This document shows positions 26,074 through 53,077 of a stretch of DNA of 64,000 bases, piece by piece. The stretch is from Sulfurovaceae bacterium (lineage in GTDB: Bacteria > Campylobacterota > Campylobacteria > Campylobacterales > Sulfurovaceae), in the NCBI GenBank assembly GCA_028715055.1, contig JAQTLE010000002.1:124001-188000 (forward strand). The letters run 5' to 3'. How positions within the stretch are numbered: position 1 is the first letter of the stretch; every line of letters starts with the position of its first letter. The notes beneath the pieces were generated by a model that worked only from the letters and a program-made list of their open reading frames with translations, did no database searches and was not told where the DNA came from. The translations under genes and the position numbers were made by a program.

Positions 26074-26075
26074 GC

Positions 26076-26821: not shown

Positions 26822-26865
26822 ACGAATCCCCTTTTATTATTTTTCTAAACTTTTTATAACAATAC

Positions 26866-26895
26866 TTGACAAAGTGTCTATAATTTGTCTATAAT
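26866..26895 (+). promoter_or_regulatory. Rightward early promoter (PR-like) with tandem operators
   Basis: TTGACA (26866-26871) and TATAAT (26890-26895) with 18-bp spacing. tgtctataat is repeated exactly at 26875 and 26886, and gacaaagtgtc is a small palindrome over the -35. The same motif occurs inverted in the leftward promoter at 24177, so one repressor probably controls both. Confidence 0.65.
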
Positions 26896-32922: not shown

Positions 32923-33003
32923 TATTTTTTGAGCTATGGCGGTCATACCAATGGATGTTGGTGACGTAATCGCTATGATTTGAAAAAAGCAAGGATTTTT
33001 GGT

Positions 33004-36223: not shown

Positions 36224-36235
36224 AAGTAGTCCGCC

Positions 36236-37597: not shown

Positions 37598-38054
37598 TAT
37601 GACAGAGAGTTTCGCGAATGTGCAAAAGGCATTGAGCAAACTGCCTACGCATTTACAAGACAGGGTTGTAGTAGGCGCAACGCGAGCAGCGGCTCAAGTT
37701 GTTGCAGATGAAGCAAAACAAAATGTGCCTGTCGATACCGGGCTTTTGAAAAAAAGCATCGGAGTAGCACAAGCCAAGAAGTCTGATACCAAGCTTGGCC
37801 ACGTCAAATTTTATGCAGTAGCAAAATCAAAAATAAGAGGTACTTCCCAAATAGATGTTGGAGGTCAAAAAGGTAAACTTAAATACAAGATACATGCGTG
37901 GTATGCACACATGGTCGAGTTTGGCACGTCCAAAATGGCAGCAATCCCATTTATGAGGCCAGCCTTTGAAAATAGCGGCGAAAAATCTGTGAGCGCGTTC
38001 CAAGAGTATGCGCTTAAACGAGTAGATAAAGAGATAACGAAGCTGAAAAAATGA
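37590..38054 (+). CDS. HK97 gp10-like tail-completion protein
   Basis: 154 residues. AAQVVADEAKQNVPVDTGLLKKSIG and YAHMVEFGTSKMAAIPFMRPAFE are the signature segments of the gp10 family. It acts at the head-tail interface. Confidence 0.87.
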   Translation: MANMTESFANVQKALSKLPTHLQDRVVVGATRAAAQVVADEAKQNVPVDTGLLKKSIGVAQAKKSDTKLGHVKFYAVAKSKIRGTSQIDVGGQKGKLKYKIHAWYAHMVEFGTSKMAAIPFMRPAFENSGEKSVSAFQEYALKRVDKEITKLKK

Positions 38055-38401
38055 TAGAAACAGAACTCCTTGATCATCTAAAACGTCAATTGCCTGCTTT
38101 GGCTGAGAGGATATATCCCCAGATCATGCCGCAGGGGTGCGTGAAGCCTGCTTTGGTCTATACCGTAGTCAATAGCAGTGATAACCAAGGATTAGAGGGG
38201 TGCGTATCATCAGAAAATACGAGAGTGCAGATAGATGTATATGCGAGCAGCTATTTAGAGGCTAAGACAGTAAAAAACGAGGTGAAAGCCGCTCTTTACT
38301 CATTTGGCTCCATCCCATACGCTATGAATAGCAGGGATGGGGTATATGAAGAAGAGGTCGGGCTTTTTAGACAAATAATTGACTTTAATATAAGGAAGTA
38401 A
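38051..38401 (+). CDS. Tail terminator protein (DUF3168-like)
   Basis: 116 residues. IYPQIMPQGCVKPALVYTVV and RVQIDVYASSYLEAKTVKNEVKAALYSF match the fold order of the DUF3168 tail-terminator family, which caps the tail tube. Confidence 0.8.
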   Translation: MIETELLDHLKRQLPALAERIYPQIMPQGCVKPALVYTVVNSSDNQGLEGCVSSENTRVQIDVYASSYLEAKTVKNEVKAALYSFGSIPYAMNSRDGVYEEEVGLFRQIIDFNIRK

Positions 38402-38402
38402 C

Positions 38403-38867
38403 ATGGCAGCAACAGGCGAAACCAACTACAAAGGAACGGCCGTAGAAGTAGCAAAAAACGGCACGACCACATGGGATAAATTTGTATGTAACGAAAATGC
38501 GATCGAGATAGACTTCGGCACTGATGCGACATCTTCTAGAGTATGTCTTGAGACGGGGGAAGAAATAGTCGGAGCTGGCTCAACTTCATACGGAGAGCAA
38601 GAATTGGACTATGTATGGACGCAAGAGCTGACAAATGCAGCTGATACCACCATCCGTAATGCGAAGATAGCTACAGCAATCGCTGATAAAAAAGTGAATC
38701 TAAGGATCACAATGAATAACAAGACGGGGGTTGAGACAAAAGGAACGTTATACCTCGTCCCATTTATCGTGACGGGGTATAAGCACTTGGGCGTCAAAGA
38801 CGGCGTATGGACCACTAAAGCAAAAATCAAACAAATAGGCGTCCCGGTAGAAACACCGGCTGCATAA
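38403..38867 (+). CDS. Major tail tube protein
   Basis: 154 residues, beta-rich, Ala-Thr-rich start (MAATGETNYKGTAVEV). Size and position between tail terminator and tail chaperones match the tail tube subunit. RBS aggaag. A 64-nt gap with a-rich sequence and RBS aaggaga precedes the next gene. Confidence 0.75.
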   Translation: MAATGETNYKGTAVEVAKNGTTTWDKFVCNENAIEIDFGTDATSSRVCLETGEEIVGAGSTSYGEQELDYVWTQELTNAADTTIRNAKIATAIADKKVNLRITMNNKTGVETKGTLYLVPFIVTGYKHLGVKDGVWTTKAKIKQIGVPVETPAA

Positions 38868-38931
38868 TTTAGCTGGGTTTTGTCTCCTTCCCCGGCACTA
38901 AAAAAAAGGACCAAATAAAAAAGGAGAGAAC

Positions 38932-39318
38932 ATGGCACAAAAAGTAACGATAACAAAAGAAGAGCTATTCGCGCTATATCCAGCTGAGACAAAAGAAATG
39001 CAAGTCAAAGCTTGGCAAAACATGAGCGTTAAAATAAAAAAATTGACAATAAAGCAAGATGATGAAGTCCAAGCAATGCTTATGAATAATGCATCTGCCA
39101 ATGACCTCAAGGACGGTAAACTAGAGGTAAGTGTGAGCCTGCTTCAAAAGTCTCAATGGTTGGCTGTGTCATATGCTCTAGTAGAGCCAAGGCTCACAGT
39201 AGATGAGATTAGCAGTCTGCCTACTGATGCATTTGCTGGGGTAAGTGAGATCTATGATGCATTGCAAGAATGGGGTAAACCAAAAAAGTCGAGGGGCGAG
39301 AGTTCCTCTTCAAACTAG
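38932..39318 (+). CDS. Tail assembly chaperone (G-like), frame 0 product
   Basis: 128 residues, acidic/helical. The ORF ends shortly after a classical slippery heptamer (39282-39288). Ribosomes that do not slip end with a Ser-rich tail (SRGESSSSN). It corresponds to lambda gpG by position and by the frameshift. Confidence 0.75.
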   Translation: MAQKVTITKEELFALYPAETKEMQVKAWQNMSVKIKKLTIKQDDEVQAMLMNNASANDLKDGKLEVSVSLLQKSQWLAVSYALVEPRLTVDEISSLPTDAFAGVSEIYDALQEWGKPKKSRGESSSSN

Positions 39319-39581
39319 CTATTTGCCTCGGCAAGACCGTGGGAGAAATAGAAAACACGATGAGTTCCGGAGAATATCTGGAGTGGCACGAATACTACAA
39401 GATAGAGCCGTTCATGGCGGATAGAAATGAGTTGCAGATGGCGATGTTGTCATCTGCCATGGCGATGGGCAAAACGAAAGTAGGAGATTTTATCATCTCC
39501 AATAAGGCTCTCAAAACAAATAAAAACAGAGATATATCCACAGCATCCGCTGCAGATATAAATAAACTAGCAGGGGTATAG
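39279..39581 (+). CDS. Tail assembly chaperone, -1 frame extension (T-like)
   Basis: The ORF track begins at a GTG (39339), but the frame is open back to 39279 and joins the upstream ORF at the slippery site. The part after the shift reads VEGREFLFKLAICLGKTVGE, then SGEYLEWHEYYKIEPFMADR. The latter is typical of the C-terminal tail-chaperone domain. The product is probably made only as a fusion with the upstream chaperone. Confidence 0.7.
   Translation, partial: TKKVEGREFLFKLAICLGKTVGEIENTMSSGEYLEWHEYYKIEPFMADRNELQMAMLSSAMAMGKTKVGDFIISNKALKTNKNRDISTASAADINKLAGV
39282..39288 (+). promoter_or_regulatory. Programmed -1 ribosomal frameshift site A-AAA-AAG
   Basis: In the frame of 38932-39318 the codons are AAA AAG preceded by A, the most efficient bacterial -1 heptamer. 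The -1 frame is open from 39279 to 39581. Slippage would give a ~216-residue fusion (G-T type). Confidence 0.75.
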
Positions 39582-39584
39582 CAA

Positions 39585-42500
39585 ATGGCAAGTGTCGGCA
39601 CGGTCGTTATCGAAGTAGATGCTAATATAGCGAAGTTGGTAGAGGGGATGAAAAAATCCCAAAGCCAGCTGTCGAATCTACAAAGAACAGCTATGCAAGC
39701 CAAAGATACTATTGCTAATTTCGCCAAAGCTGCTGCAGGGCTATGGGTAGTTAAGCAAGGCATAGACTTGGCAACGGCTGCAGTTGCAAGTTTTGTGGAT
39801 ACTGCTGCACAATTTGAGCAGTTTGAAACCACGCTAACCTCCATCACCGGCTCAAGCGAGCAAGCAAAACAATCAATGAAGTGGATACAGGATTTCGCTG
39901 CACAAACTCCTTTTAACATCGATAAGGTGACAGAGGCGTTTGTGAAGATGAAAGCATATGGATTAGATCCGCAAGATGGTACACTCAAAGCTCTTGGGAA
40001 TACCGCTGCCGCCATGGGTAAAGATATAGTGGACGCGGTAGAAGCGATGGCGGACGCCGTAACTGGAGAGAATGAGAGGCTAAAAGAATTTGGGATCAAA
40101 GCATCACAAGCAGGACAAAAGGTAGCATATAGCTGGGCGGACAGTTCCGGCAAAATGAGAAATATCTCAATCGCAAATAATAAAGACATCATCCAATCCA
40201 CCCTCACCGCTATATTTAACGAGAAATATGCAGGGGCCATGGAAGCACAGTCCAAAACATGGAAAGGGATGGTATCAAACCTAGAAGATACTTGGACGAT
40301 ATTTAAAAAAGATGTCATGAACGAGGGGCTATTTACATATCTAAAAGGCATATTAGCCACTTTTGGTGATTATCTCAAAAATGGGTTTGATGGTGCCAAA
40401 AATGGCGCAGCATCAATGTCAGATAGCATAATAAGCGGTATTAAGTCTATTATATTGGCAGTAGGAAATATGTATGATGCTTGGAATGGCATTAAACTAG
40501 CCTTTGCCTCTGTCGCCCTGGCTTTTGGGGCGCTTCAAGCTCCGTTCGTGGCCGTAATAAACGTAATGGTCAAGGCTTGGGATTTTCTCGGCACTAGCAT
40601 GCAAAATATATTCAAAGATGCAATCAATCATATTCTAAATAATATGAACCCACTAATAGCCGTTACAAATCTTATAATCAAAGGGCTTAATGCAGCGGGT
40701 CTAAGTTCTGCAAAACCTATAAGTATAGATACAAGCAAATATATTGATTTTGGAGCGTCTGCCGCTAAAACATATGCAACTGAATATAAAGCAACGATGG
40801 TTGATCTCTCTCAATTTGTTAAATCAACATATGCGGATGTAGAAAAGGCTATCGGCAAAAATACTGCTTTAAAAGTAATAAGTGATATAGATAAAAAAAT
40901 AAAAGAAATGTCGAAACCACAAAACAGCTTTGAGGCGCAAAAAGAAGCAGCCAAAGCGGCGCTAGACGCTCTAGGAGCGGGGTATGGGGCTCTAGGAAAT
41001 GCAGCGCAAGGTGCAGGCAAAAAAGGATCTGCCGCCGCAAAAGAGCATGAAAAAGCACTTAAAGATGCCGCCAAAGCTGCAGAGGAATTGGCAGCCAAAC
41101 AAAAAGAAGCATATTATGATTATCTAGAAGTGACCGGCAAAAAAGCAGAGGTGGCAATGGCAAAAGCTATGGACCAATATGACAAATACTCATCACTCCT
41201 ACCTAATGATAAAATTAGAAAAGAGTATTTTGATGGGCTGGTCAAAAACGCGAAAGAAGCAGCGGACAAAATAAAGCTAGATTTCACCGATCAATTCAAA
41301 GGGCTTTTTGAAAATTTATTTAAAGGCGATATGAGTGGTGCGATAAAAGGCTTTTTTGATGGCGTATCTATGGACCTAATGAAAGGCATGATAGATAATT
41401 TATCAAAATCATTTCAAAGCAGTATAAGTAGCATATTTGGCGGACTGGGGGATATGGGGAGCGGGTTAGTAGGATTAGCTCTTGGGTTGGCATCCAAACT
41501 ATTCAGCTCTCATGTCACACAAGCGCAAATTGACGCTGCAAAAGGCAAGTCTGACTTTAGCGATGCTAGTATCAAAAATCTAGGCTCGATGTTCGCGAAT
41601 GTACAGTATCCGATGCTTGAAGTCACCAATAAAATGTATAAAAACATCCGCAATATGGATAACAACTTCCAAAGCGTGGCGCGTGCCATCACCGGCAATG
41701 CAAGTGCAAGCGGTATCGACTTAACGGGGGCGAACTTCGTGAATACTGCAACGAGTGGCTTTCTGGGCTTTTCATCAAAAACCGTCTCGCTTATCGGCAC
41801 CGGCTTAAAATTTGAATTGCAAAACTTGACTGATATGATGGATATGGCTTCATTATCTGTCAAAGGCTATACCTCTAAGCTAGTCGAGAGTTCGTCATTT
41901 TGGGGATTATTTAGCAGCTCCAAGATCCAAACCTCTTTGACAAACTTGCCAGACTCTGTGAAAAAGGACATCTCTAGCGTATTCGCAAGCGGATACCAAA
42001 ACATCATGACAGCAGGCGTGGCTCTAGGATTTAATGAGACGAATATCGCAGATGCCTTAGCAAAAGCCCAATTGAATATAGGCAAGATAGACTTCACAGG
42101 GTTAAGCTCTGCGGAAGTCAGTGAAAGATTTAGCCAAGCGGTGAGTGGGGCGTTTAGTGGAGTGATCAACGGTATATCGATGTTTACGGGATTAGTGGAT
42201 AGATACGCCACGTCAAGCGAAGCTTCCTTGGAAACTTTAGTGCGTATAGCGACCGAATACGATCAAGCCACTCATTCATTTAATCTGATAGGCAAAAACT
42301 TCATAGACGGCATAAATGGCTTCAATAAGCAAATGCAAGTCTTAGATATCGTGAAAAGCACCGGCGGATTGACAAACTTTAGCGACGCTATGGGGTCGTT
42401 CATGTCGAACTTCTACACAGATGCCGAGCAGCTGAAATTCATGCAAAGCTCTATCGGCACTGCGTTCCAAACTCTAGGTCTTAGCACAGTACCGACCACC

Positions 42501-42980
42501 AATTCCGAGTTTAGAAAACTGCTTGAAACGATGGACACTAGCACAGAGAGCGGAGCGTATCTATATGGGCAAGTGCTGATGCTATCTGATAGCTTCTCCA
42601 AAATGACATCGGCGTCAGATAACCTCAAGACTGCATTGTCCGGAAGCCTGCAATCTGTTATCGATACTATTACTGGAGATTTGAGCGCATTTACCTTATC
42701 GCAAAAAGCTGATTTTACCTCACAATACTACGACCTGGCACGTCAAAGCAATGGTGCTTTGAGCTCACTAGACGCAGCCAAAGCGCAAGCAGAGATGAAG
42801 CTCAAAACTGTCGCGACTAGAGAGGATTATTATCAGTTCATAGATACGTACAAAAAAGAGATAGAGAAACAAGCCAAAGACGCGTCAAATACGGATCTAT
42901 TGAATGCTATCAACAAGCTGATAACCACAGTAGAAACATCAAGCAACAAACAAATCCAAACCATGATAGGGATAGCGTAA
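39585..42980 (+). CDS. Tail tape measure protein
   Basis: 1131 residues; sets tail length. The N-terminus VEGMKKSQSQLSNLQRTAMQ is followed by a conserved FETTLTSITGSSEQAKQSMKWIQDFA block of the tape-measure family. Hydrophobic segments lie in the middle (about residues 295-330), with long Ala-rich coiled coils at 450-520 and a beta-rich tail. By common scaling (~1.5 Å per residue) the tail would be ~170 nm. It overlaps the next gene by 1 nt (TAATG). Confidence 0.93.
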   Translation: MASVGTVVIEVDANIAKLVEGMKKSQSQLSNLQRTAMQAKDTIANFAKAAAGLWVVKQGIDLATAAVASFVDTAAQFEQFETTLTSITGSSEQAKQSMKWIQDFAAQTPFNIDKVTEAFVKMKAYGLDPQDGTLKALGNTAAAMGKDIVDAVEAMADAVTGENERLKEFGIKASQAGQKVAYSWADSSGKMRNISIANNKDIIQSTLTAIFNEKYAGAMEAQSKTWKGMVSNLEDTWTIFKKDVMNEGLFTYLKGILATFGDYLKNGFDGAKNGAASMSDSIISGIKSIILAVGNMYDAWNGIKLAFASVALAFGALQAPFVAVINVMVKAWDFLGTSMQNIFKDAINHILNNMNPLIAVTNLIIKGLNAAGLSSAKPISIDTSKYIDFGASAAKTYATEYKATMVDLSQFVKSTYADVEKAIGKNTALKVISDIDKKIKEMSKPQNSFEAQKEAAKAALDALGAGYGALGNAAQGAGKKGSAAAKEHEKALKDAAKAAEELAAKQKEAYYDYLEVTGKKAEVAMAKAMDQYDKYSSLLPNDKIRKEYFDGLVKNAKEAADKIKLDFTDQFKGLFENLFKGDMSGAIKGFFDGVSMDLMKGMIDNLSKSFQSSISSIFGGLGDMGSGLVGLALGLASKLFSSHVTQAQIDAAKGKSDFSDASIKNLGSMFANVQYPMLEVTNKMYKNIRNMDNNFQSVARAITGNASASGIDLTGANFVNTATSGFLGFSSKTVSLIGTGLKFELQNLTDMMDMASLSVKGYTSKLVESSSFWGLFSSSKIQTSLTNLPDSVKKDISSVFASGYQNIMTAGVALGFNETNIADALAKAQLNIGKIDFTGLSSAEVSERFSQAVSGAFSGVINGISMFTGLVDRYATSSEASLETLVRIATEYDQATHSFNLIGKNFIDGINGFNKQMQVLDIVKSTGGLTNFSDAMGSFMSNFYTDAEQLKFMQSSIGTAFQTLGLSTVPTTNSEFRKLLETMDTSTESGAYLYGQVLMLSDSFSKMTSASDNLKTALSGSLQSVIDTITGDLSAFTLSQKADFTSQYYDLARQSNGALSSLDAAKAQAEMKLKTVATREDYYQFIDTYKKEIEKQAKDASNTDLLNAINKLITTVETSSNKQIQTMIGIA

Positions 42981-44914
42981 TGGCAACGATATTAGAAGAG
43001 ATAGACTGCGAATTCGTATCATCAAATGTCACGGACAGTACGCCGCTTTGGGATAATACCAAAAACACGGCTATATTAGCCAAAGCCAAGCTGCAATATG
43101 ATAAATATATATTTTTGAATAACACTCCTAATCCTATAATTTTTAGCGATTATGACCCAAACTATACTTATGCACTCGGGGATATATCGTATAAAGACGG
43201 TCATGTATCGATATACTCCAACGGCGATGGGGGCATCTCGCCTAAAATGCCAAGCGAATATGCTGCGCACGATGCCTCTTTTGACAGTTCAGTGTGGGCG
43301 AACAGATATGTATTGCTTGGGACTAACACCGCAACATATCCTGAAATTGCTTTGACAGCTACAAGTACGGATTCAAATATCGCGATTTCCACGGTAAGCA
43401 ACAACGGGGTTTATACATATACTTGCGACATAGACTCTACATCAACCGGACAAATTATAAACACTGATACTGGGTTAAAAAATCCAACCGATTTTAACAG
43501 TGTCGGGGATGGTTTTACTTGGAGTGATTTTAATTCCATTAGAGCAAAAGACGGAATTCTTGCGACTAGAAACATGCTCCAAGGTGATACAAAAAAAAGC
43601 GCAACTCTTTTGAGTTTGGGATATGATTTTTCGTCAATTCCAAATAATGCCACGATAAAAGGTATCGAGATACAAATTACTAGGAAAAGTAGTGGCTCGC
43701 GTTTTCAAGACGTCCTCGTATCTCTCTTTAATGGGATAACGCAGAAAGGTATAAATGTAGCTTCTACTAACTTTTGGTCATCTACTTTAACAACTGCAAC
43801 TTATGGGGGCGCGACTAATTTGCTGGGATGGGCAAACATAACCGTCTCGGACCTAAAATCATCTGATTTTGGGGTGGGGCTTAGCGCATTAAATAATTCT
43901 ATTTACGACTCTACCGCTTATTTAGACTCTATCCAAGTAAAAGTTTATTACGAATATGTAGAAGCTCAAGCGTGGGCTTACAGCTCTAGCCCGACGGCGA
44001 CCAATCTGGTTACCTCTGAAAATGTATTGACCGAAACCAAACCGACAATGCACTTAGATAAAAGTAATTATGCCTATGAGTTCAAATCACTGATAGTTAG
44101 CGGAACAAGCATTTATGCCAGAACAGACAAAGATGTGGGTTATGAAACCAAAACACTCGAGGTGATATGGGAAGCAGTGCAAAGCCCCGCGCAACTAGGG
44201 ATGATATATATCGGACACTCCAATCGCTTCGCGCCGTTCGATGATACGAACAATACGCCTGCTGTCTTCGCAAGTCCGATGACATATGTAGTCAAAGGGC
44301 TTGAAGATTTTAATGCCTTTACCCTGTCTAAAGTATTAGCTTCTAGCGTGACTTATACATTCAAAGACCCGAGCGGAAATGTAGTCAAAACCGCCACTGC
44401 CGCTATTGACTGCAAAAGAGACCCGGGAGGCATACTGTCTCTATACCCTACCACGGTGGTTTTGTATGCAGATACACAAATGGCTCCCAACTCCACGATC
44501 GAGATAACTCTCACTCATGATGATGATATCAAACTTGGAAGCTTCACGGTCAATAATGGTGTAAGAAAAATATTTTTTACTGATCTTGTTTTTTCGAAAG
44601 GCTCGATAAGCTACAACAATATCCAAGCGGACGAGTTCGGGTTCATAGATAAAGGTAATAAGCCGGTCGTTACTTCTTTCAATATCAAGACGCATATGAT
44701 CCTAGACAATTTCAGATACAGCGCTCCGTTCCTGGAAAGCATCGTAGATAAATGGGTCACAGTGGATGGCGCGGATTCATGGGATGGGAAGACTACTTTC
44801 GCCCCATTGGTTAGACGGGCCGTACTTGGAGACCATAGCATCTCAAGTGTAGTAGAAAACGGAGAACTTGGCGACATGGTAGAAGCTACCATCATGGTGA
44901 AGGAGATCATATGA
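42980..44914 (+). CDS. Tail tip / baseplate-type structural protein
   Basis: 644 residues, beta-rich and Thr/Ser/Asn-rich, no transmembrane segments. A middle part (GYDFSSIPNNATIKGIEIQI) looks like a carbohydrate-binding or lectin-like jelly roll. The C-terminal third contains GVRKIFFTDLVFSKGSISYN. Position after the tape measure suggests distal tail or tail-tip function. Family not recognised. Confidence 0.65.
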   Translation: MATILEEIDCEFVSSNVTDSTPLWDNTKNTAILAKAKLQYDKYIFLNNTPNPIIFSDYDPNYTYALGDISYKDGHVSIYSNGDGGISPKMPSEYAAHDASFDSSVWANRYVLLGTNTATYPEIALTATSTDSNIAISTVSNNGVYTYTCDIDSTSTGQIINTDTGLKNPTDFNSVGDGFTWSDFNSIRAKDGILATRNMLQGDTKKSATLLSLGYDFSSIPNNATIKGIEIQITRKSSGSRFQDVLVSLFNGITQKGINVASTNFWSSTLTTATYGGATNLLGWANITVSDLKSSDFGVGLSALNNSIYDSTAYLDSIQVKVYYEYVEAQAWAYSSSPTATNLVTSENVLTETKPTMHLDKSNYAYEFKSLIVSGTSIYARTDKDVGYETKTLEVIWEAVQSPAQLGMIYIGHSNRFAPFDDTNNTPAVFASPMTYVVKGLEDFNAFTLSKVLASSVTYTFKDPSGNVVKTATAAIDCKRDPGGILSLYPTTVVLYADTQMAPNSTIEITLTHDDDIKLGSFTVNNGVRKIFFTDLVFSKGSISYNNIQADEFGFIDKGNKPVVTSFNIKTHMILDNFRYSAPFLESIVDKWVTVDGADSWDGKTTFAPLVRRAVLGDHSISSVVENGELGDMVEATIMVKEII

Positions 44915-45318
44915 TAGTGCTTTTTTGGGATAAAAGTGTAATGCCGCGCCCGGTCTATCCTTTTACTAGAAAACCGCAGACACTGACTAGATATCTAGGC
45001 GGCGGATCTGCGAAACTCCAAAATGCAGTACGGCAGGCGGAATTTTTAGCAGAAGGAAATGAAAAGCAGGCCGCATTTGATGAATTTTTGGAAAATATAA
45101 ATTATGGAGCTGACAGATTTTTGATAGACCTGCGGCTAAATGGGCAGGAGAAGACGTATCTATGCAAGATATCGGATATCGATATCAAGCAAGACTACCC
45201 AACGCTATCCAATATCACGGCTACGCTCACGGTCTTGCCGGTAGAGTATTCTATAAATGCAAACGGCGAGTATGTAGTCGATGACACATACAACACGCCG
45301 ACAATCATCACAATTTAG
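44911..45318 (+). CDS. Tail protein, unknown
   Basis: 135 residues, starting MIVLFWDKSVMPRPVYPFTR, then AEFLAEGNEKQAAFDEFL. It overlaps the preceding gene by 4 bp. A short beta-type protein, probably a baseplate component; not recognised. Confidence 0.6.
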   Translation: MIVLFWDKSVMPRPVYPFTRKPQTLTRYLGGGSAKLQNAVRQAEFLAEGNEKQAAFDEFLENINYGADRFLIDLRLNGQEKTYLCKISDIDIKQDYPTLSNITATLTVLPVEYSINANGEYVVDDTYNTPTIITI

Positions 45319-45326
45319 GAGGTCAA

Positions 45327-47462
45327 ATGAGAACTATTATAGGAACACTGGAGAGGGTGGATGGGACACCGTCAGCGAACACGAAAATAACATTTACGCT
45401 GGTTAACGAAAGCAACAGAGTTATATCTAGCTTTATAGCTGAGACACATGAACAAGTTTATGGCTCTGCGGAAGTGACTACAGATGAAAATGGAGCGTTT
45501 AGCGTTTCGCTAGTTGAAAACACGCTTCTGTCTGATGAGACATATTATTTAGTCAAAACGGATAAGTCAGCAATACCTTCGTTTAGAGCAGCATTGGCAG
45601 CAGGCGCTGGAGATATAGATTGGTTAGAATTCAAAGCTAGTGGCGGCCCAATCGAGCCTGCGGTTTTAGACATCATCCAAACATATATCGATACCGCAGA
45701 AGCAGCAGCTACAATCTCTACAACCAAAGCAGGTGAAGCTTCTTTAGACGCAGAACAAACAGCTCTTGACCGAATAGCAACAGGCGAGGACAGGGTAGCT
45801 ACTGGACTTGACGCAGAACAAACAGCTCTTGACCGAATAGCAACAGGCGAGGACAGGGTAGCTACTGGACTTGACGCAGAACAAACAGCTCTTGACCGAA
45901 TAGCAACAGGCGAAGATAGAACCGCGTGTGGGGAATCTGCTCAAATAGTTTTAGACAATAAGCCGAACATTGACATCATTGCCGCTAACATAGATGTCAT
46001 AGAGAATCTATCCACGAACATAGATGAGATTATGGATGGAATAGTTTATACGATAGGCACAGCAGGACAAATAGGCTTTGGCGTTTCTCCAGCTAGAAAA
46101 GAGATATATGAAAAGTACGGGATGATACCTTTTGAGGGGCATACTAGCATGACTAGCCCGAACAGAGGTAAATATCTTCATGCGGCAAGTGGCTCTATAT
46201 TTTACTATATCCCAAAACATTACTATAAAACTACGGTAAATGAAAATCTATTTAGTGATGTCCCTATAGTCGGATATATACTAGATAGAAGCTTCATAAA
46301 TGCAGGAGTTGAGATAGAAGGTATATTCGTTTTTGGTTTTGGCGGCTCTAATAATGCTGGGAAACTAAGTGCTAGACAAGGATATGACCCAGTGAGCACA
46401 AATTCAGCTCACAATCCTATATCAGCTCTCACAGGAACTCCTGCCAACAACTATGGCGGTGCTTATAAGGCGGTAAAATCTTGTGACGCTAATGCTTGTG
46501 TGCAGACTGTGTGGGTAGATGCTATGCTAGCAAGACTTGCTATCGCGCATGGTAAATCAGCTACAACCCAAACCGCTTGTGCATATATGGATGTGAATCC
46601 TAAGCACCCAAAAGGGAATAACAATAACGCGCTCAAAGATGTTAACGATACTAGCGTGACTTTCACATCAAGCGGATATTCCAACTGTGCTCTGACTGGC
46701 TCAGGCGTTCCATTCGCTAAGACCACACATAATGGACAAGAGTGTGGTATCGCAGACCTTAATGGCAATATGTATCATGTGGCTGCTGGACTAACATACA
46801 AAGCAAGAACAGGGGCTACTGGCACATCTGGCACTAATGCAGTAGTTTTGACCGCTCATAAATATGCGGCAGGACAAAAAATAGCATTTGGCGGCACTCC
46901 TAGCACCGGGACTACATACAATACCGCATTATATATAGTCGATACTGTTGTGGATGCCAATAACTTCACTCTGACTACTAATTTGGAACGCAACATATTG
47001 GCAACGGATGGCATATATACGGGCAAAACCTTCTATATACTAAAAGAAAGCGTAGATATGACGGCAATCCTCGATGATAGCACTACCGCTGGAACTGGGG
47101 CATATGATATGAACTTATACGAACAGATAGATTTGTCTGATTTGATTTTTGATAATACCTTAATAAAATTAGGTAACGGCACAAATCAAGTGTACGGTTT
47201 TAGTACGGACAGAAGTAGTGCTGCATACAAGAGAGCTGCTATCGGGATACCTCTCGCAGGGGGAGTAAGTGCAGGGGGGACTACAGAGTTTGGGGATGAC
47301 GGATTATATAGATACCTCAGACACGACTTGGCTGTCATCGCCGGCGGCGCTTGGGACAATTCTTCCGCTGCCGGTGTGGGCAATGTGACTTTGTACCACT
47401 ATCGTACGGGGTCCGATAACGAGGTTGGGGTTCGCGCCTATATACCAGCGACCTTGTCATGA
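45327..47462 (+). CDS. Tail fibre / receptor-binding protein, DGR target with C-terminal variable region
   Basis: 711 residues. A beta-sandwich N-terminus (IIGTLERVDGTPSANTKITF) follows a tail-attachment pattern. Then comes a coiled coil built of a 21-residue repeat (about residues 140-200), and a C-terminal half with C-type-lectin/formylglycine-enzyme-like features. The last 42 residues are the variable region (IAGGAWDNSSAAGVG...VRAYIPATLS), matching the template at 47921-48027 with differences mostly at template adenines. It probably binds the host surface, with binding residues diversified by the reverse transcriptase. RBS aggaggtc. Confidence 0.88.
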   Translation: MRTIIGTLERVDGTPSANTKITFTLVNESNRVISSFIAETHEQVYGSAEVTTDENGAFSVSLVENTLLSDETYYLVKTDKSAIPSFRAALAAGAGDIDWLEFKASGGPIEPAVLDIIQTYIDTAEAAATISTTKAGEASLDAEQTALDRIATGEDRVATGLDAEQTALDRIATGEDRVATGLDAEQTALDRIATGEDRTACGESAQIVLDNKPNIDIIAANIDVIENLSTNIDEIMDGIVYTIGTAGQIGFGVSPARKEIYEKYGMIPFEGHTSMTSPNRGKYLHAASGSIFYYIPKHYYKTTVNENLFSDVPIVGYILDRSFINAGVEIEGIFVFGFGGSNNAGKLSARQGYDPVSTNSAHNPISALTGTPANNYGGAYKAVKSCDANACVQTVWVDAMLARLAIAHGKSATTQTACAYMDVNPKHPKGNNNNALKDVNDTSVTFTSSGYSNCALTGSGVPFAKTTHNGQECGIADLNGNMYHVAAGLTYKARTGATGTSGTNAVVLTAHKYAAGQKIAFGGTPSTGTTYNTALYIVDTVVDANNFTLTTNLERNILATDGIYTGKTFYILKESVDMTAILDDSTTAGTGAYDMNLYEQIDLSDLIFDNTLIKLGNGTNQVYGFSTDRSSAAYKRAAIGIPLAGGVSAGGTTEFGDDGLYRYLRHDLAVIAGGAWDNSSAAGVGNVTLYHYRTGSDNEVGVRAYIPATLS
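45747..45920 (+). repeat. 63-bp tandem repeat (three copies) in the tail fibre gene
   Basis: The unit starts gacgcagaacaaacagctct and repeats at 45747, 45810 and 45873. The first two are identical; the third degenerates near its end. Each encodes DAEQTALDRIATGEDRVATGL, a coiled-coil shaft element whose copy number sets shaft length. Confidence 0.9.
47334..47440 (+). repeat. DGR variable region (VR)
   Basis: Aligns to the template repeat at 47921-48027 without gaps. Over 110 columns there are 17 differences, 14 at template A. Affected codons are mostly AAT/AAC in the template; in VR they read as Ala, Asp, Thr, Tyr, His, Gly and Glu. The 3' end gttggggttcgcg is identical in both and is the likely initiation-of-mutagenic-homology segment. 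Confidence 0.93.
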
Positions 47463-47489
47463 GTGAACGATAGTGAACGGAGATAAAAC

Positions 47490-47885
47490 ATGGGCATAAA
47501 TAGCGAAGCGATTTTAAATCATAAGTTTTTGGAGATGGCAAAGCTGCTTAATGTATATCTCAATCATTTTCCAAAACATGAAAAATATGCACTCGCTAAT
47601 AATATTAGAAATACCGCGTACTGCATGTACGATCTTATCACTGAGTGTCAAAAAAGGTATTTTAAAAAAACATCATTGACGGAGCTTGATATCGTTCATG
47701 AGAAATTGAGAATGCAGATATATCTTGCAAACGAACTTGGATATTTTGGGTTCAAAGACGGGAAGGAGAGCCAACAGGCAAATAGTGTAAAAAGATTTAT
47801 AGCGCTAACCAAACTCATAGATGAACTTGGGCGAATGATCGGCGCATGGATCAATAAATTAAAAAATATGGCAAATTTTAAATGA
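47490..47885 (+). CDS. avd: DGR accessory variability determinant (Avd)
   Basis: 131 residues, four long helices, basic, no membrane segment (HEKYALANNIRNTAYCMYDL, then KRFIALTKLIDELGRMIGAW). Size, helix pattern and place between target gene and template match Avd, the four-helix-bundle pentamer that partners the DGR reverse transcriptase. Its stop overlaps the RT ORF ATG (ATGA). RBS ggag lies upstream. Confidence 0.87.
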   Translation: MGINSEAILNHKFLEMAKLLNVYLNHFPKHEKYALANNIRNTAYCMYDLITECQKRYFKKTSLTELDIVHEKLRMQIYLANELGYFGFKDGKESQQANSVKRFIALTKLIDELGRMIGAWINKLKNMANFK

Positions 47886-49147
47886 ATAACTTAGGGCAAC
47901 ATAGCAATATGAAAAATGAAGTCATCGCCGGCGGCAATTGGAACAATTCTTCCAATGCCGGTGTGGGCAATGTGAATTTGAACAACAATCGTACGAATTC
48001 CAATAACAATGTTGGGGTTCGCGACTTTATTTCCATGCCTGAAACATCAAGAGATGATACTGGAAATATAGGGGTATGTTGTCCTGCTAAAAGCGAAATC
48101 AAAAATACAAATAATCTTTTGAGTAACTTAGTTGAAAATCAGATTAAATCAAAACGAATAGGCAATTTATTTGAAAAAGCGTTTAGTGTAGAAAATCTAT
48201 ACCAGGCTTTTTTGGATGCTAGAAAAGGCAAAAGAAAAAAAAGAGCGACGCTGAATTTTGAGAAAAATCTAGGCACAGAGCTCTTGGATCTATATAGTGA
48301 GCTGCATGATGGGGATTATAAGACAAAACCATATAAGCAATTTAAAGTCTATGAACCCAAAGAGAGGGTAATCAATGCCCCTCATTTTAGAGACTTAGTG
48401 GTGCAGCATGCTATATATAGAGTTATTTATCCTATATTTGATAAGTCTTTTGCGGATACCAGCTATGCGTGTCGCAAAGGCGGGGGCACGCACAAGGCAA
48501 GTGCCTATACTCAAAAAGAGATGAGAAAGCATGACGGAGAGCTTTATTATGTGAAGCTTGATATTCGTAAATTTTTCTACAACATCGATAGAGAAATCCT
48601 GCGAAAACTTTTCGAGAAAAAAATAAAAGACAAAAAGTTTATAGAGATCATGATGCAGTTTGCAAATATGGACACGAGCAAAGGCATACCGATAGGTAAT
48701 CTTCTAAGCCAACTATACGCGCTGATATATATGAACCCCGTGGACCATTACGCAAAAAGAGAGCTAAAAGTGAAGTCATATGTCCGCTACGTAGATGATA
48801 TTGTGGCAATCGGGGTAACGCTTGATATTGCTAAAAATATAAAAAATAAAATAGAAAAATTCATACAAGATAAGTTGAACCTGGAATATTCTCACTGGAT
48901 GATCTCCAAAATAAAAAAAGGCATTAATTTTGTAGGGTACCGCACATGGAAAAGCGTGAAGTTTGTCCGGAAGCATAGTATGTACAAATTTAAAAAAGCA
49001 ATCAAAAAATCTCGTATTGAGTCAATAGTATCTCTGATAGGACACGCAAAGGGAACGGCGTCGACTTCGTATTTTAGATCACTGTTGGCTGAACATGAAA
49101 TTTTAAACCAAATACCAAAGAGGAGCCTAGCATGTTTAAATATGTAA
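47882..49147 (+). CDS. DGR reverse transcriptase (template repeat in its 5' part)
   Basis: 421 residues as given. The RT domain starts near residue 91 (KRIGNLFEKAFSVENLYQAF). Motif 3 is YVKLDIRKFFYNID, the DGR-type motif 4 is GIPIGNLLSQ (in place of QGxxxSP), and the catalytic box is RYVDDIVAIG. It uses the template RNA to make mutagenised cDNA that replaces VR. The ATG at 47882 is coupled to avd (ATGA) but would translate the template. An ATG at 48035 (MPETSRDD, 370 aa) starts after the template but lacks an RBS. The true start is uncertain. Confidence 0.92.
   Translation: MNNLGQHSNMKNEVIAGGNWNNSSNAGVGNVNLNNNRTNSNNNVGVRDFISMPETSRDDTGNIGVCCPAKSEIKNTNNLLSNLVENQIKSKRIGNLFEKAFSVENLYQAFLDARKGKRKKRATLNFEKNLGTELLDLYSELHDGDYKTKPYKQFKVYEPKERVINAPHFRDLVVQHAIYRVIYPIFDKSFADTSYACRKGGGTHKASAYTQKEMRKHDGELYYVKLDIRKFFYNIDREILRKLFEKKIKDKKFIEIMMQFANMDTSKGIPIGNLLSQLYALIYMNPVDHYAKRELKVKSYVRYVDDIVAIGVTLDIAKNIKNKIEKFIQDKLNLEYSHWMISKIKKGINFVGYRTWKSVKFVRKHSMYKFKKAIKKSRIESIVSLIGHAKGTASTSYFRSLLAEHEILNQIPKRSLACLNM
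47921..48027 (+). repeat. DGR template region (TR)
   Basis: Ungapped match to VR, with AAT/AAC-rich codons (GGNWNNSSNAGVGNVNLNNN when translated). AAY codons are the classical template design: adenine mutagenesis explores many residues without making stop codons. It lies between avd and the RT catalytic domain, as in the Bordetella phage BPP-1 arrangement. Confidence 0.93.
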
Positions 49148-49662
49148 CTTATACACCAGCGACCGACCAATACACCACACACTCTTTTGCAGAGTCAAAC
49201 GATAAATGCAAGGTACATAGATTTGATGTTCCGCTTGTATCTGTAGAGTGTGAAAACGAAAGTGACTTTAATGAGTTGATGGCAAGTCAAAATCCTATCA
49301 TCCAAGCAATTGAGATAACAAAAGAAGAGTTTGCAAGTGCGGTATCAGACAGCGCGCAAGTGCAAAGAATGTATGACAGAGCTAACGAGCTACTTAAAAA
49401 CTTAATGAAGCCTATTTCTAACAAATACTGTAAAGAGGAAAGGGATACTTGGGACAGTCAAAAAGAAGAAGCTAATGCTATTTTAGCAGGAGCTACTAAT
49501 ACAACAATATTAGGAACTTTAGCAACTGCCGAAGGAGCTACTATTCAAGAGTTTGCACAAGCCGTAGTGAGTAATAGAGCGAATTTTGAAGCGTTAAGTG
49601 CTAATGCTCTAGTGCAAAAAAGAGCTTTTTTGGCAGAGTTAAAAGCAGAGGTGGGGCTGTGA
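49132..49662 (+). CDS. Tail fibre assembly-like protein, unknown
   Basis: 176 residues. A first part of ~60 residues (YVTYTPATDQYTTHSFAESN), then a long helical part rich in Ala/Glu. It starts inside the RT end (16-bp overlap) with RBS gaggagcc. Position after the fibre/DGR block suggests a fibre chaperone, but the family is not recognised. Confidence 0.55.
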   Translation: MFKYVTYTPATDQYTTHSFAESNDKCKVHRFDVPLVSVECENESDFNELMASQNPIIQAIEITKEEFASAVSDSAQVQRMYDRANELLKNLMKPISNKYCKEERDTWDSQKEEANAILAGATNTTILGTLATAEGATIQEFAQAVVSNRANFEALSANALVQKRAFLAELKAEVGL

Positions 49663-50111
49663 AACTAGCATTTTATAAAGCATTTCAAAACCAAGCAACA
49701 TGGCTGGATATATTCATAGCACTTGTAACATTTGGCAGATATAGTCATGTGGAAATCGTGTTTAGTGACGGCATGTCGTTTTCAATCAGCCCTCGTGAAA
49801 AAGTCTGTAGATTTAAGCGGATAGACTTTAATCCTGATAACTGGGATTTTATAGAGCTCGTAGTTACCAAAAAAGAAGAAGATTATATTCGCGCAATGGA
49901 ATATAAATATCTTCATTGTACCTATGACTATATCGGAGCGATGACTTCTGCCACGCCTATCTGTCTACAAGTCAGTAGTGAAATGTTTTGCAGCGAACTA
50001 GCAACAGAGCTGATCCGCAATTCACTATCATATAGAAGGCTTAGGGATGGGTGCAGATATAGCCCAAATGCGTTATATAAAATCTTAGGAGGTGGCAGGT
50101 GGCAAAAATAA
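49659..50111 (+). CDS. Permuted NlpC/P60-like (papain-fold) amidase
   Basis: 150 residues. The His site FGRYSHVEIVFSDG precedes the Cys site EMFCSELATELIRN, the circularly permuted order of the YiiX/YaeF-type papain-like family. It may cut peptidoglycan peptides during entry or lysis, or modify lipids. It overlaps the upstream gene by 4 bp. Confidence 0.7.
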   Translation: MKLAFYKAFQNQATWLDIFIALVTFGRYSHVEIVFSDGMSFSISPREKVCRFKRIDFNPDNWDFIELVVTKKEEDYIRAMEYKYLHCTYDYIGAMTSATPICLQVSSEMFCSELATELIRNSLSYRRLRDGCRYSPNALYKILGGGRWQK

Positions 50112-50136
50112 AAGTAAATGAGGGGGGGGATATATA

Positions 50137-50391
50137 ATGGATTGGCAATGGGTAGCAGACGGGCTTTTCGCACTATCAGGTATATTGCTTGGGATGTTAT
50201 ATAGTGATGTGAGGAAAGATATGGCAAAACAGGACAAAGTACTTGACGCATTGACGGAAAAAATCCACGAAGTGGACAAGCTTGTAGCTGGAAACTATGT
50301 TCATAAAAATGATCTAAAAGAGATCACTAATGCTCTATTCAATAAATTAGAACTGATATGCGAAAAATTAGACAGAAAGGCAGATAAATGA
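50137..50391 (+). CDS. Small membrane protein with coiled coil (holin-region)
   Basis: 84 residues. One N-terminal transmembrane helix (WVADGLFALSGILLGMLYSD), then a charged helix with heptads. RBS gaggggggg. This topology matches antiholin/holin-associated proteins at the start of phage lysis cassettes. It overlaps the next gene by 4 bp. Confidence 0.6.
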   Translation: MDWQWVADGLFALSGILLGMLYSDVRKDMAKQDKVLDALTEKIHEVDKLVAGNYVHKNDLKEITNALFNKLELICEKLDRKADK

Positions 50392-50660
50392 AAAATTTAA
50401 AACGCGTGGCATTCGAGCTTTTGCTCTCGGTATTTATATTAGGATTGTTTTTTAGCGGTGGGTATGAGTTGGTACCGCCGGCTTTGCAGCTATTGGCTCT
50501 CAAAGTGGTATTAGTGTCAGTGGGCTTGCTCCATGCTCATGCTGCAGGGAAATTGCTTGTGAATACGACAGTAGATTGGACGGACGATTTTCATCCGGCC
50601 CATTTTGTAAGGATGGTGCTTTATGTGGTTGTACCTATTTGTTATTCTCTCGGCGGTTAG
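50388..50660 (+). CDS. Holin-like membrane protein
   Basis: 90 residues with three hydrophobic segments (VAFELLLSVFILGLFF; LQLLALKVVLVSVGLLHAHA; MVLYVVVPICYSLGG). It lies directly before and overlaps the lytic transglycosylase by 38 bp. This position is that of a holin releasing the endolysin, an inference from topology and context. Confidence 0.65.
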   Translation: MKNLKRVAFELLLSVFILGLFFSGGYELVPPALQLLALKVVLVSVGLLHAHAAGKLLVNTTVDWTDDFHPAHFVRMVLYVVVPICYSLGG

Positions 50661-51204
50661 TCTGAACGCCGGCACTGTCGGCAGGTGCCAGAGCTATGTT
50701 CAGGATGTGCGTAAGGCACACTGGGAGCAGTTCGGAGTAGATTACCCATATCAATATGGAGTAGCGCAGCTCCAGCAAGAATCCAATTGCAGAAATGTGT
50801 TATCTCTTGACGGTGTAGGATCGGAAGGATTGCCACAGATCACTTATCGACTTTGGCAAAAACCACTTGCATCGCATGGGGTGAAATCTATTCGTGCCAT
50901 TCCAGATCAGCTCAAGGCGCAAGCTATCATCATGCGGTCAGTATATCAGCCCAAATATGGGCTTTGGGTGACATACCAAGTCTATAATGGAGGAGGTTTG
51001 GTACTCAAAGAAATAGGGCGTGCAGGCGGAGAGGACTGGGGCAAGGCAAAGGCACAATGCCGTAGAGGGCAAAGCTGCTTTACATACAAGAACGGCAAAA
51101 GGGAATGCGTGAGCAATTGCGTTATCAACTATGACTATAGTAAAAAAATAGATCGATACGCGCAAAATTACGGAATGATCAAAACAAAATATAGATATTG
51201 GTAA
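50623..51204 (+). CDS. Lytic transglycosylase-type endolysin with signal peptide
   Basis: 193 residues. N-terminal hydrophobic leader (MWLYLFVILSAVSLNAGTVG), then an SLT/lysozyme-like domain with the catalytic Glu in QLQQESNCRN and SEGLPQITYRLW. Four later Cys (CRRGQSCF, CVSNC) could form disulfides in the periplasm. A secreted endolysin would need the holin less. Confidence 0.82.
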   Translation: MWLYLFVILSAVSLNAGTVGRCQSYVQDVRKAHWEQFGVDYPYQYGVAQLQQESNCRNVLSLDGVGSEGLPQITYRLWQKPLASHGVKSIRAIPDQLKAQAIIMRSVYQPKYGLWVTYQVYNGGGLVLKEIGRAGGEDWGKAKAQCRRGQSCFTYKNGKRECVSNCVINYDYSKKIDRYAQNYGMIKTKYRYW

Positions 51205-51216
51205 GGAGACTAGCCT

Positions 51217-51393
51217 ATGAAAACTATAATAATCAATCAATACGGAAAATACTTACAAGGTGCGGAATTTGACGAGATACTAGATGCCCACAATAAGGAT
51301 GTCACAACAGTTGTATTCCGGGATAAGAAAGTAAAAATTGTCGAGGTCACAAAAAATGACAACGAGCAAATTATCAAAGTGGAGATAGAGTGA
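51217..51393 (+). CDS. Small protein, 58 aa (too short for the ORF track)
   Basis: Encodes MKTIIINQYGKYLQGAEFDE and ends IIKVEIE. A compact alpha/beta protein with no known motif. RBS aaggaga, and its stop overlaps the next ATG (TGATG), so it belongs to the lysis operon. Confidence 0.55.
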   Translation: MKTIIINQYGKYLQGAEFDEILDAHNKDVTTVVFRDKKVKIVEVTKNDNEQIIKVEIE

Positions 51394-51779
51394 TGAATAA
51401 AATAAAACTATTTCTTAGTGCGGTACAAATGTACTTATGGATCGCGGTTGGTATTATTATCTTAGGGCAGGGGTTTTATATCTATACTCAAAACAAGGAC
51501 CTAGAGAGGAAGGACTTAGAGTATAAAGTTCTTATCGGACAGCATAAAAATCTAGCAGACGCAGTCGGGAAACAAAATAAAGCTATCGAAGGTATGGCAA
51601 TAGACGAAGCCAAAGCAAATAAGAAGTTTGAAGCAGCCAAGGCTAGTATCAAACAAACATATCAAGCTTTAGTAGATAAATATAAAAACACGCCTAAAGA
51701 CAAGCAATGCGAAATTATTATCGAGCAAAATCGCAAAGAGTACGAAGAGGACAAAGGAGTAGGCTATGAAGAGATTTGA
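51393..51779 (+). CDS. i-spanin, Rz-like
   Basis: 128 residues from the ATG at 51393; the ORF track uses a GTG one codon earlier. One N-terminal transmembrane helix (YLWIAVGIIILGQGFYIYT) and a long periplasmic coiled coil follow. It overlaps the lipoprotein gene below by 14 bp. Together they would fuse inner and outer membrane as the last lysis step. Confidence 0.7.
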   Translation: MNKIKLFLSAVQMYLWIAVGIIILGQGFYIYTQNKDLERKDLEYKVLIGQHKNLADAVGKQNKAIEGMAIDEAKANKKFEAAKASIKQTYQALVDKYKNTPKDKQCEIIIEQNRKEYEEDKGVGYEEI

Positions 51780-52020
51780 CATTATTATTTTTGTGATCGC
51801 TGCTATATCAGTATCGTTCTTGCTCTTTGGATGCAGCGAAAAAGTACCGCCAAACCCAACTGCACTAATCCCAGTCGAATGTCAATTCGCTCCGATACCT
51901 CCATTGAAGATGATGGTAGTTAATCCTAAAGACGATGTGGAGATTGATATGAGAATACATGAACAACGACACTTAATGCAAGAGACACTTAGGAAGTGCA
52001 AGAAAGCGAAAGCGAGTTAG
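51766..52020 (+). CDS. o-spanin, Rz1-like lipoprotein
   Basis: 84 residues. The signal peptide ends in a lipobox (SFLLFGCSEK), so Cys would be lipidated for outer-membrane anchoring. The Pro-rich stretch KVPPNPTALIPVE is typical of Rz1 proteins. It starts out of frame inside the Rz-like gene. Confidence 0.7.
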   Translation: MKRFDIIIFVIAAISVSFLLFGCSEKVPPNPTALIPVECQFAPIPPLKMMVVNPKDDVEIDMRIHEQRHLMQETLRKCKKAKAS

Positions 52021-52147
52021 TTCGCTTTGGGTAGTGATATCCAACAAATAATACAGCCGCCCTGGTGAACGACTGCAAAAATATTTTAATGATATTTTGC
52101 GCCAAAGTTCTTTTATATGGTCAAAATGTCATATTTTAAGGATATAG

Positions 52148-52945
52148 ATGCAGAAAAATATAAACACACCTTTTGGTTGGATAGGCGGAAAGAGTCAGCT
52201 CACAAGCGACATCATCAAAAAAATGCCGCAGCATAGTCTGTATGTAGAGGTGTTTGGTGGCTCCTTGGCCGTCCTTTATGCTAAAAATAGCCGGCACTCG
52301 TCTGGGTATCGAGAAATAGTCAATGATATAAACTCGGACCTGATAAATCTTCATAGGATCATACAAACACGGCCAGAGTCTCTAAGGCAGCAGCTGCACA
52401 GGATGTTGATCAGTAGAGAGGTGTTCTATGCCATAAGGCGAAAAAAATATCAACCACGCAATGATATAGAAAAAGCGGCATTTTATTTTTATTTATTGAG
52501 CCAAAGCTTTGGCAGCAAGGGCGATAATTTTGCCATGTCAGCCAAAACAAAAAGGCCCAAAGATATTTATAAGAGTTTTGATGTATGGTCGCGCCGGCTC
52601 AAATTTGTAACTATAGAAAATATGTCATTCGCAGAGCTGATCTCTACATACGATTGTGAAGATGCATTCTTTTATTGCGACCCTCCTTATGTGGGGACAG
52701 AGGATTATTATAAAAATACCGGCGGATTTGGAATAGATGAGCATACCAGGCTAAGAGATTGTTTGGCAGATATCAAAGGTAAATTTTTGGTAAGCTATAA
52801 CGACTGCGAGGTTGTGAGAGATTTGTATAAAAATTTCAATATAGAAAATACGAAGCAGATCAAATATACACTCAATGGGAAAGATAGCAAAAATATTAGT
52901 GAAGTTTTTATTACCAATTATAAAGTAAATACGTTGTTTATTTAG
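52148..52945 (+). CDS. DNA adenine methyltransferase (Dam-type, MT-A70/D12 class)
   Basis: 265 residues. The SAM-binding motif is NTPFGWIGGKSQLT, then VEVFGGSLAVL. The catalytic motif DPPY lies in FYCDPPYVGTEDY. It methylates adenine in a short target, unknown here. As the last phage gene before attR it may protect phage DNA or alter host expression in the lysogen. The 127-bp gap before it contains no gene. Confidence 0.88.
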   Translation: MQKNINTPFGWIGGKSQLTSDIIKKMPQHSLYVEVFGGSLAVLYAKNSRHSSGYREIVNDINSDLINLHRIIQTRPESLRQQLHRMLISREVFYAIRRKKYQPRNDIEKAAFYFYLLSQSFGSKGDNFAMSAKTKRPKDIYKSFDVWSRRLKFVTIENMSFAELISTYDCEDAFFYCDPPYVGTEDYYKNTGGFGIDEHTRLRDCLADIKGKFLVSYNDCEVVRDLYKNFNIENTKQIKYTLNGKDSKNISEVFITNYKVNTLFI

Positions 52946-53001
52946 TGTATAATGCAAAATATATTAGGGATAAAAACACTTAGTGGCACAATAAAACAAA
53001 G

Positions 53002-53022
53002 GTGTACCCAAAAGTGTACCCA
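53002..53022. promoter_or_regulatory. Probable integrase arm-type sites, right end
   Basis: gtgtaccca at 53002 and 53014, the same 12-bp spacing as on the left, within a larger inverted repeat agtggca / tgccact (52982-53030). It lies 40 bp from the attR core. Confidence 0.55.
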
Positions 53023-53062
53023 TTGCCACTTTCTGCCCCTAAAAAAGGGCAAGAGTGGATAA

Positions 53063-53077
53063 CTTATCGTCGCACCT
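53063..53077 (+). repeat. Prophage attR core
   Basis: cttatcgtcgcacct, identical to attL at 17359-17373. It is followed by ttttttatac, probably the original rnpB terminator tail now 35.7 kb from the gene. Confidence 0.9.

What the first reader, a model, noticed from the sequence alone, without database searches (positions are those of the whole stretch)
47334..49147. Diversity-generating retroelement in a Campylobacterota-type prophage
Direct: VR (47334-47440) and TR (47921-48027) align without gaps; of 17 differences in 110 columns 14 are at template adenines, mainly in AAT/AAC codons. The RT has the DGR motif-4 form (IPIGNLLSQ) and YVDD. Known: target-avd-TR-RT order as in Bordetella phage BPP-1. 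Inference: the phage diversifies its fibre tip to change host-surface recognition.
Basis: partly seen in the sequence, partly recalled or inferred. Interest (0 to 1): 0.9.

Follow-up and report, generated by a model that had tools for sequence, protein, structure and literature searches.

The report
Phage tail-protein diversity-generating retroelement
A virus lying dormant in a sulfur-cycling type of bacterium carries a complete copy of a known mutation machine (a diversity-generating retroelement) that scrambles the tip of its probable tail protein; it is a real and well-formed example of a known kind, with a few unusual details.

Summary
Confirmed. The window holds a complete diversity-generating retroelement (DGR) of the Bordetella BPP-1 type, in an apparently intact 35.7-kb HK97-type prophage integrated at the 3' end of rnpB in a Campylobacterales genome (same family as a Sulfurovum-labelled MAG). 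VR and TR differ at 17 of 110 columns, 14 at template adenines (p~3e-7). One of those 14 (TR A48024 / VR C47437) is a fixed end marker (IMH*/IMH) shared by 82 of 86 relatives, not mutagenesis. RT and Avd match DGR families. The target's C-terminus models as a C-type-lectin variable protein (TaqVP Z 25.4; Mtd Z 11). In relatives with near-identical RT-side DNA, VRs differ almost only at template adenines (e.g. 20/37 A vs 0/93 others), so the clade diversifies in nature; activity of this copy was not tested. Details: the TR end pairs with the spacer in a covarying RNA helix; a GATA-loop hairpin follows VR; the RT frame stays open through TR and spacer, although the spacer evolves as RNA, not protein. 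TR/RT overlap is already in the literature. New member of a known kind. In passing: a diverged 5S rRNA gene inside the prophage, and target-RT fusions in a related genome.

The parts
17359..53077 (.). Prophage, bounded by 15-bp att repeats CTTATCGTCGCACCT (17359-17373 = 3' end of rnpB; 53063-53077)
   Evidence: exact repeat; RNase P RNA RF00010 17031-17378; empty sites in G005:C6 and G002:C5, where the rnpB match and the downstream match overlap by exactly 15 bases
17426..18589 (+). Tyrosine integrase
   Evidence: PF00589 4.6e-18, phrog_1 3.7e-43
31297..42980 (+). Head/tail morphogenesis: large terminase, portal, protease, HK97-type capsid, adaptor, tape measure
   Evidence: PHROGs/Pfam hits
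45327..47462 (+). DGR target: 711-aa putative tail protein, coiled-coil-like 21-aa repeats then C-terminal C-type-lectin variable domain
   Evidence: ORF; AF2 model of aa 245-711, pTM 0.87; TaqVP 5vf4 Z 25.4, Mtd Z ~11, TvpA Z 10.4
47334..47439 (+). Variable region (VR), target C-terminus
47424..47439 (+). IMH-like invariant 3' end of VR (gttggggttcgcgcct), fixed C at 47437
   Evidence: 82 of 86 VRs carry C opposite the A of the TR-terminal GACT
47461..47480 (+). Candidate target-site hairpin, GATA loop, stem interrupted by tandem G.A mismatches; overlaps the target stop codon
   Evidence: score 10.1, shuffle p 0.06 alone; similar position and loop in most relatives, several with perfect stems
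47490..47885 (+). avd (accessory variability determinant), 131 aa
   Evidence: PF22296 bAvd 2.5e-15 above cut-off; phrog_3206 'Avd protein of DGR' 2.2e-19; NF033474 below cut-off
47921..48026 (+). Template repeat (TR), ends in GACT (IMH* marker A48024)
48025..48094 (+). Structured TR-end/spacer RNA: helix 48025-48035 with 48061-48071, helix 48072-48074 with 48082-48084, helix 48086-48087 with 48093-48094
   Evidence: 94.9% of cells paired, 23 double changes vs 7.4 expected, covariation score reached by 0/500 shuffles
47882..49147 (+). RT ORF (421 aa), start overlaps avd stop (ATGA), in frame through TR and spacer; RT core about 48140-49144
   Evidence: phrog_1423 7e-113, PF00078 7e-19; motifs IPIGNLLSQ, YVDD; frame analysis
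52148..52945 (+). Phage D12-class (Dam-type) DNA adenine methyltransferase
   Evidence: PF02086 8.5e-36

Best explanation
A BPP-1-type DGR in a temperate phage. The avd-TR-spacer RNA is copied by the RT-Avd complex; the spacer, paired to the 3' end of TR, sets up cDNA synthesis; template adenines are copied with random bases; the mutated cDNA replaces VR at the 3' end of the target gene, guided by the IMH-like end and the hairpin just after it. Result: 13 Asn (AAY) codons in the C-terminal lectin-fold domain of a tail protein are varied, 10 of which encode another residue here, so phage particles can differ in what they bind. Shown here: repeats, adenine bias, gene content, fold model, conserved RNA helix, end marker, natural diversification in relatives. 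Inferred from BPP-1: priming, homing, receptor switching, and that this copy is active.
For: Adenine bias; single locus in the genome; Avd and RT family matches; 146 loci (some duplicates) with an adenine-biased pair whose TR lies 500-1100 nt upstream of RT motif 4, mostly 660-690 nt among close relatives; sister loci with identical or near-identical RT-side DNA differ in VR at template A far more than elsewhere: 20/37 vs 0/93, 11/29 vs 0/100, 6/43 vs 0/87, 21/41 vs 2/89, 16/32 vs 1/98, and in a Campylobacterota pair 17/28 vs 1/102; fixed IMH*/IMH marker; hairpin; covarying TR-end/spacer helix; lectin-fold target; apparently intact prophage.
Against: Three of 17 differences are not at adenines. 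The hairpin in this copy is imperfect (p 0.06 alone). No second isolate of this phage was found, so activity of this very copy is not shown. NCBIfam's Avd model is below its cut-off (64.5 vs 80 bits).
Confidence: 0.96

Rival explanations
1. A decayed DGR: correctly built but no longer active, VR fixed since an earlier homing event.
For: Non-adenine differences in VR (3 of 17); imperfect hairpin; related genome G071 holds two derivatives with avd and one repeat missing.
Against: RT, Avd, target, TR-end/spacer helix and IMH marker are all intact; the Asn codons of TR have not drifted; phage structural genes are intact.
Confidence: 0.15
2. A different RT system (group II intron, retron or defence RT) beside a chance or duplicated repeat.
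For: Weak hits to group II maturase, Drt3a and UG-type RTs.
Against: All NCBIfam hits lie far below cut-off (121 vs 300 bits and lower); DGR motif-4 form; Avd; adenine-biased TR/VR in the same place in over 100 relatives.
Confidence: 0.01
3. The TR-encoded N-terminus is a functional domain of the RT rather than a by-product of read-through.
For: Frame open in a set of 21 loci with spacer lengths all equal modulo 3; ATGA overlap with avd.
Against: Spacer codons show no protein constraint (synonymous share of changed codons 0.13-0.21 vs 0.59 in RT core); a subclade within the same group has a broken frame with the RT starting after the spacer.
Confidence: 0.12

Closest known systems
Bordetella phage BPP-1 DGR (mtd-avd-TR-brt, AY029185)
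   Same: Gene order, Avd, DGR RT (35% identity), VR at the end of the target gene, hairpin after VR, similar TR-to-motif-4 spacing (685 vs 662 nt)
   Different: Target is TaqVP-like rather than Mtd-like in overall fold match; RT ORF starts in the avd stop and is read in frame through TR (brt is annotated as starting after TR); GATA-loop hairpin with G.A mismatches instead of a perfect GAAA hairpin; IMH/IMH* marker is A/C in a GACT/GCCT end
Thermus aquaticus DGR variable protein TaqVP (5vf4)
   Same: Best structural match of the target C-terminus, Z 25.4 over 298 residues, rmsd 3.6, 19% identity
   Different: Here a phage protein with a stretch of about 70 aa (250-321 of the model) that resembles phage adhesin and tail domains instead
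DGRs of Campylobacterota phages and MAGs in IMG/VR and GTDB (e.g. L004-L010, L023, L025, L036)
   Same: RT 65-75% identical, same layout, same kind of hairpin and spacer, open RT frame through TR
   Different: Different phages; target C-termini 47-57% identical
DiGReF structural group 3 (TR overlapping an end of the RT ORF; PMC3521204)
   Same: TR overlaps the 5' end of the RT ORF
   Different: The section read classifies the overlap but does not test whether the frame is kept open

Membership tests
Diversity-generating retroelement (BPP-1 type) | RT of DGR type | tested here: met
   phrog_1423 7e-113, IPIGNLLSQ and YVDD; about 30-51% identity to RTs of phages including BPP-1
Diversity-generating retroelement (BPP-1 type) | TR/VR near-repeat with differences at template adenines | tested here: met
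   14 of 17, p 3e-7
Diversity-generating retroelement (BPP-1 type) | VR at 3' end of a target gene with a C-type lectin fold | tested here: met
   aligned VR ends 17 nt before the stop; TaqVP Z 25.4, Mtd Z 11; the fold is a prediction
Diversity-generating retroelement (BPP-1 type) | Avd accessory protein | tested here: met
   PF22296 above cut-off, phrog_3206
Diversity-generating retroelement (BPP-1 type) | IMH/IMH* distinction at the 3' end of VR/TR | tested here: met
   C in VR vs A in TR in 82 of 86 loci
Diversity-generating retroelement (BPP-1 type) | Hairpin/cruciform after VR | tested here: inconclusive
   Window copy imperfect, p 0.06; relatives often perfect at a similar place
Diversity-generating retroelement (BPP-1 type) | Structured spacer RNA after TR | tested here: met
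   Covarying helix, 0/500 shuffles reach the score
Diversity-generating retroelement (BPP-1 type) | Mutagenic retrohoming in cells | not testable with these tools
   Only sister-locus variation in relatives
Group II intron maturase / retron / DRT | Curated score cut-off of the family model | tested here: not met
   121 vs 300, 48 vs 235, 55 vs 200 bits

The most novel reading that the evidence does not exclude
In this Campylobacterota phage clade the RT is made only by ribosomes that start at the avd stop (ATGA) and travel through the template and the structured spacer, so that template folding and RT synthesis are coupled on one RNA: a built-in control not described for BPP-1.
Probability: 0.3. 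Interest if true: 0.5.

Novelty: new member of a known kind. Interest (0 to 1): 0.35.

Why it matters
It adds well-formed DGRs, with signs of activity in relatives, in phages of sulfur-cycling Campylobacterota, and gives a comparative set of over 100 loci in which cis elements (end marker, hairpin, TR-end/spacer helix) can be read from sequence alone. BPP-1 was reported to lack a clear ribosome-binding site before brt (PMC12875486); the read-through frame here suggests one testable answer to how the RT is translated in this clade.

Tried and rejected
Exact TR pattern in viral contigs: no match, so no second copy of this phage for a direct VR comparison. Same-genus genomes: none of the other 10 carries the RT. 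Other RT systems (group II, retron, DRT): NCBIfam scores below cut-offs. Spacer as protein: rejected on codon pattern. Remote VR for the fused loci of genome G071: none found; Avd in that genome: none found with this query, which is weak evidence. Literature on DGRs with Sulfurovum: no paper in the library. A paper search for phage-borne 5S rRNA genes gave nothing on the point.

Full report
OBSERVATION. VR 47334-47443 and TR 47921-48030 align without gaps at an offset of 587. There are 17 differences, 14 at TR adenines (7 A>G, 5 A>C, 2 A>T), 2 T>G and 1 T>A; the hypergeometric probability of at least 14 of 17 at adenines is about 3e-7. The pair occurs once in the 1.76-Mb genome. Of 13 Asn (AAY) codons in TR, 10 encode another residue in VR (read from the translations).

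COMPONENTS. The ORF after VR is Avd (PF22296 2.5e-15, above its cut-off; phrog_3206 2.2e-19). The next ORF is an RT (phrog_1423 7e-113; PF00078) with IPIGNLLSQ and YVDD; it is 35% identical to the RT of Bordetella phage BPP-1 over the core. Matches to group II, retron and DRT models are far below curated cut-offs. The target C-terminus (aa 245-711) was modelled from 28 sequences (pTM 0.87, mean pLDDT 83). The best match is the T. aquaticus DGR variable protein TaqVP (5vf4, Z 25.4, 298 residues aligned, rmsd 3.6), followed at a distance by Mtd of BPP-1 (Z about 11), formylglycine-generating-enzyme-like proteins and T. denticola TvpA (Z 10.4). Residues 250-321 of the model resemble domains of phage tail and adhesin proteins.

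SETTING. The cassette lies in an apparently intact temperate phage: tyrosine integrase, CI- and CII-like regulators, DnaB helicase, terminase, portal, protease, HK97 capsid, adaptor, tape measure, DNA adenine methylase. A 15-bp repeat (17359-17373 and 53063-53077) marks the ends; the left copy is the 3' end of rnpB (RF00010 17031-17378). In two same-genus genomes (G005, G002) the rnpB match and the match to the right flank meet with exactly 15 bases of overlap, i.e. the empty site. Host: by its relatives, order Campylobacterales. One same-family genome (G112, contig 312 of 27070 bases) corresponds by contig number, length and coordinates to JALVXW010000312.1, labelled Sulfurovum sp. (L036). 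Within the family 4 of 175 genomes, and within a phylum sample 6 of 397, carry a related RT.

IS THE CLADE ACTIVE? Scans of viral and genome contigs gave 146 loci (some duplicates) with a TR 500-1100 nt upstream of RT motif 4 and an adenine-biased partner. Sister loci identical or nearly so on the RT side differ in VR almost only opposite template adenines: L130/L131 20 of 37 A vs 0 of 93 other; L144/L145 11/29 vs 0/100; L134/L135 6/43 vs 0/87; L139/L140 21/41 vs 2/89; L030/L039 16/32 vs 1/98; and the Campylobacterota pair L027/L038 17/28 vs 1/102. Several other pairs are identical throughout and are probably the same phage. For the window's own phage no second copy was found, so its activity is inferred.

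CIS ELEMENTS. (a) The A of the TR-terminal GACT is C in the VR of 82 of 86 loci, whereas other template adenines read A 1031, G 631, C 303, T 272 in VR. This is therefore an IMH*/IMH-type end marker, and the window's A48024/C47437 difference is not a mutation. (b) After VR most relatives carry a hairpin with a GNNA, mostly GATA, loop; some are perfect (L014, L129, L156), many have tandem G.A mismatches next to the loop-closing pairs; the window's is of the second kind (47461-47480, p 0.06 on its own). The GNNA form was chosen after looking at the sequences, so the scores are descriptive. Hairpins after VR are known to matter in BPP-1 (PMC3240598). (c) The end of TR pairs with the spacer: 14 pairs, 94.9% of cells paired, 23 cells with double changes vs 7.4 expected, covariation score reached by 0 of 500 shuffles and far above the slid versions. 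The structure was derived from the same alignment, so the slid control leans in its favour, and related rows inflate the shuffle control. In BPP-1 the spacer is known to fold and to prime cDNA synthesis at IMH* (PMC12875486).

THE RT FRAME. The RT ORF begins in an ATGA overlap with the avd stop and runs through TR and spacer. In 21 relatives with this layout there are 0 stops in the RT frame over the spacer, against about 63 expected from shuffles and 50 and 122 in the other frames, and spacer lengths are all equal modulo 3. The 21 were chosen for being open, so the zero and the equal phase follow in part from that choice; the informative part is that most of a wide and diverged clade is open. 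Changed codons in the spacer are synonymous in only 13-21% of cases against 59% in the RT core, so the spacer is kept as RNA rather than as protein. On the RT tree open and closed states changed about 13-14 times, and within the window's own clade of 29 rows one subclade of 6 is closed. I take this to mean that in these phages the RT is probably translated by read-through from avd, with the leader tolerated; an internal start cannot be excluded. TR overlapping the RT ORF has been described (DiGReF group 3, PMC3521204).

RELATED ODDITY. In genome G071 two loci, the window's nearest neighbours on the RT tree (100/97 support), have target and RT in one ORF with a single repeat and no avd. They look like VR x TR deletions; in L180 the repeat is VR-like at its start and TR-like at its end. 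They are too diverged from each other (RT 67%, target 52% identical) to be one recent event, and an assembly artefact is not excluded. No other VR was found in that genome for the L181 repeat.

VERDICT. A real, complete DGR; new member of a known kind. The unusual details are refinements, not a new system.

Noticed in passing
window 25954-26071 (-): A full-length 5S rRNA gene (Rfam RF00001, 71 bits, E 5e-13) lies inside the prophage; it is about 78% identical to the 5S genes of two same-genus genomes (99% identical to each other) and is the only 5S found in this draft assembly. A terminator-like hairpin with a T run sits directly upstream of it in its own sense. Phage-borne rRNA genes are rare to my knowledge; function unknown.
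   Followed up: partly
L180:2216-4852 and L181:2325-4709 (genome G071): Two loci where the DGR target and the RT form one ORF (879 and 795 aa, stop to stop) with a single VR/TR-like repeat and no avd; on the RT tree they are the window's nearest neighbours. They look like VR x TR deletions, but an assembly artefact is not excluded.
   Followed up: partly
window 17359-17373 and 53063-53077: The prophage attachment site is the 3' end of rnpB (RNase P RNA), with empty sites in two same-genus genomes.
   Followed up: yes
L182 (genome G071, C1:400500-407000): A second, different DGR type in the same genome, whose target ends in RASDWDSYVWYSDWSVGSRFACDHVKLA.
   Followed up: no
window 58038-58103 and 59200-59265: A 66-nt near-repeat (10 mismatches) is the shared signal-peptide-like start of two neighbouring host proteins, one with ankyrin-like repeats; not a DGR.
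   Followed up: yes
window 45747-45935: Three tandem 63-nt repeats in the target gene (21-aa units), two of them identical, suggesting a recently expanded shaft.
   Followed up: no
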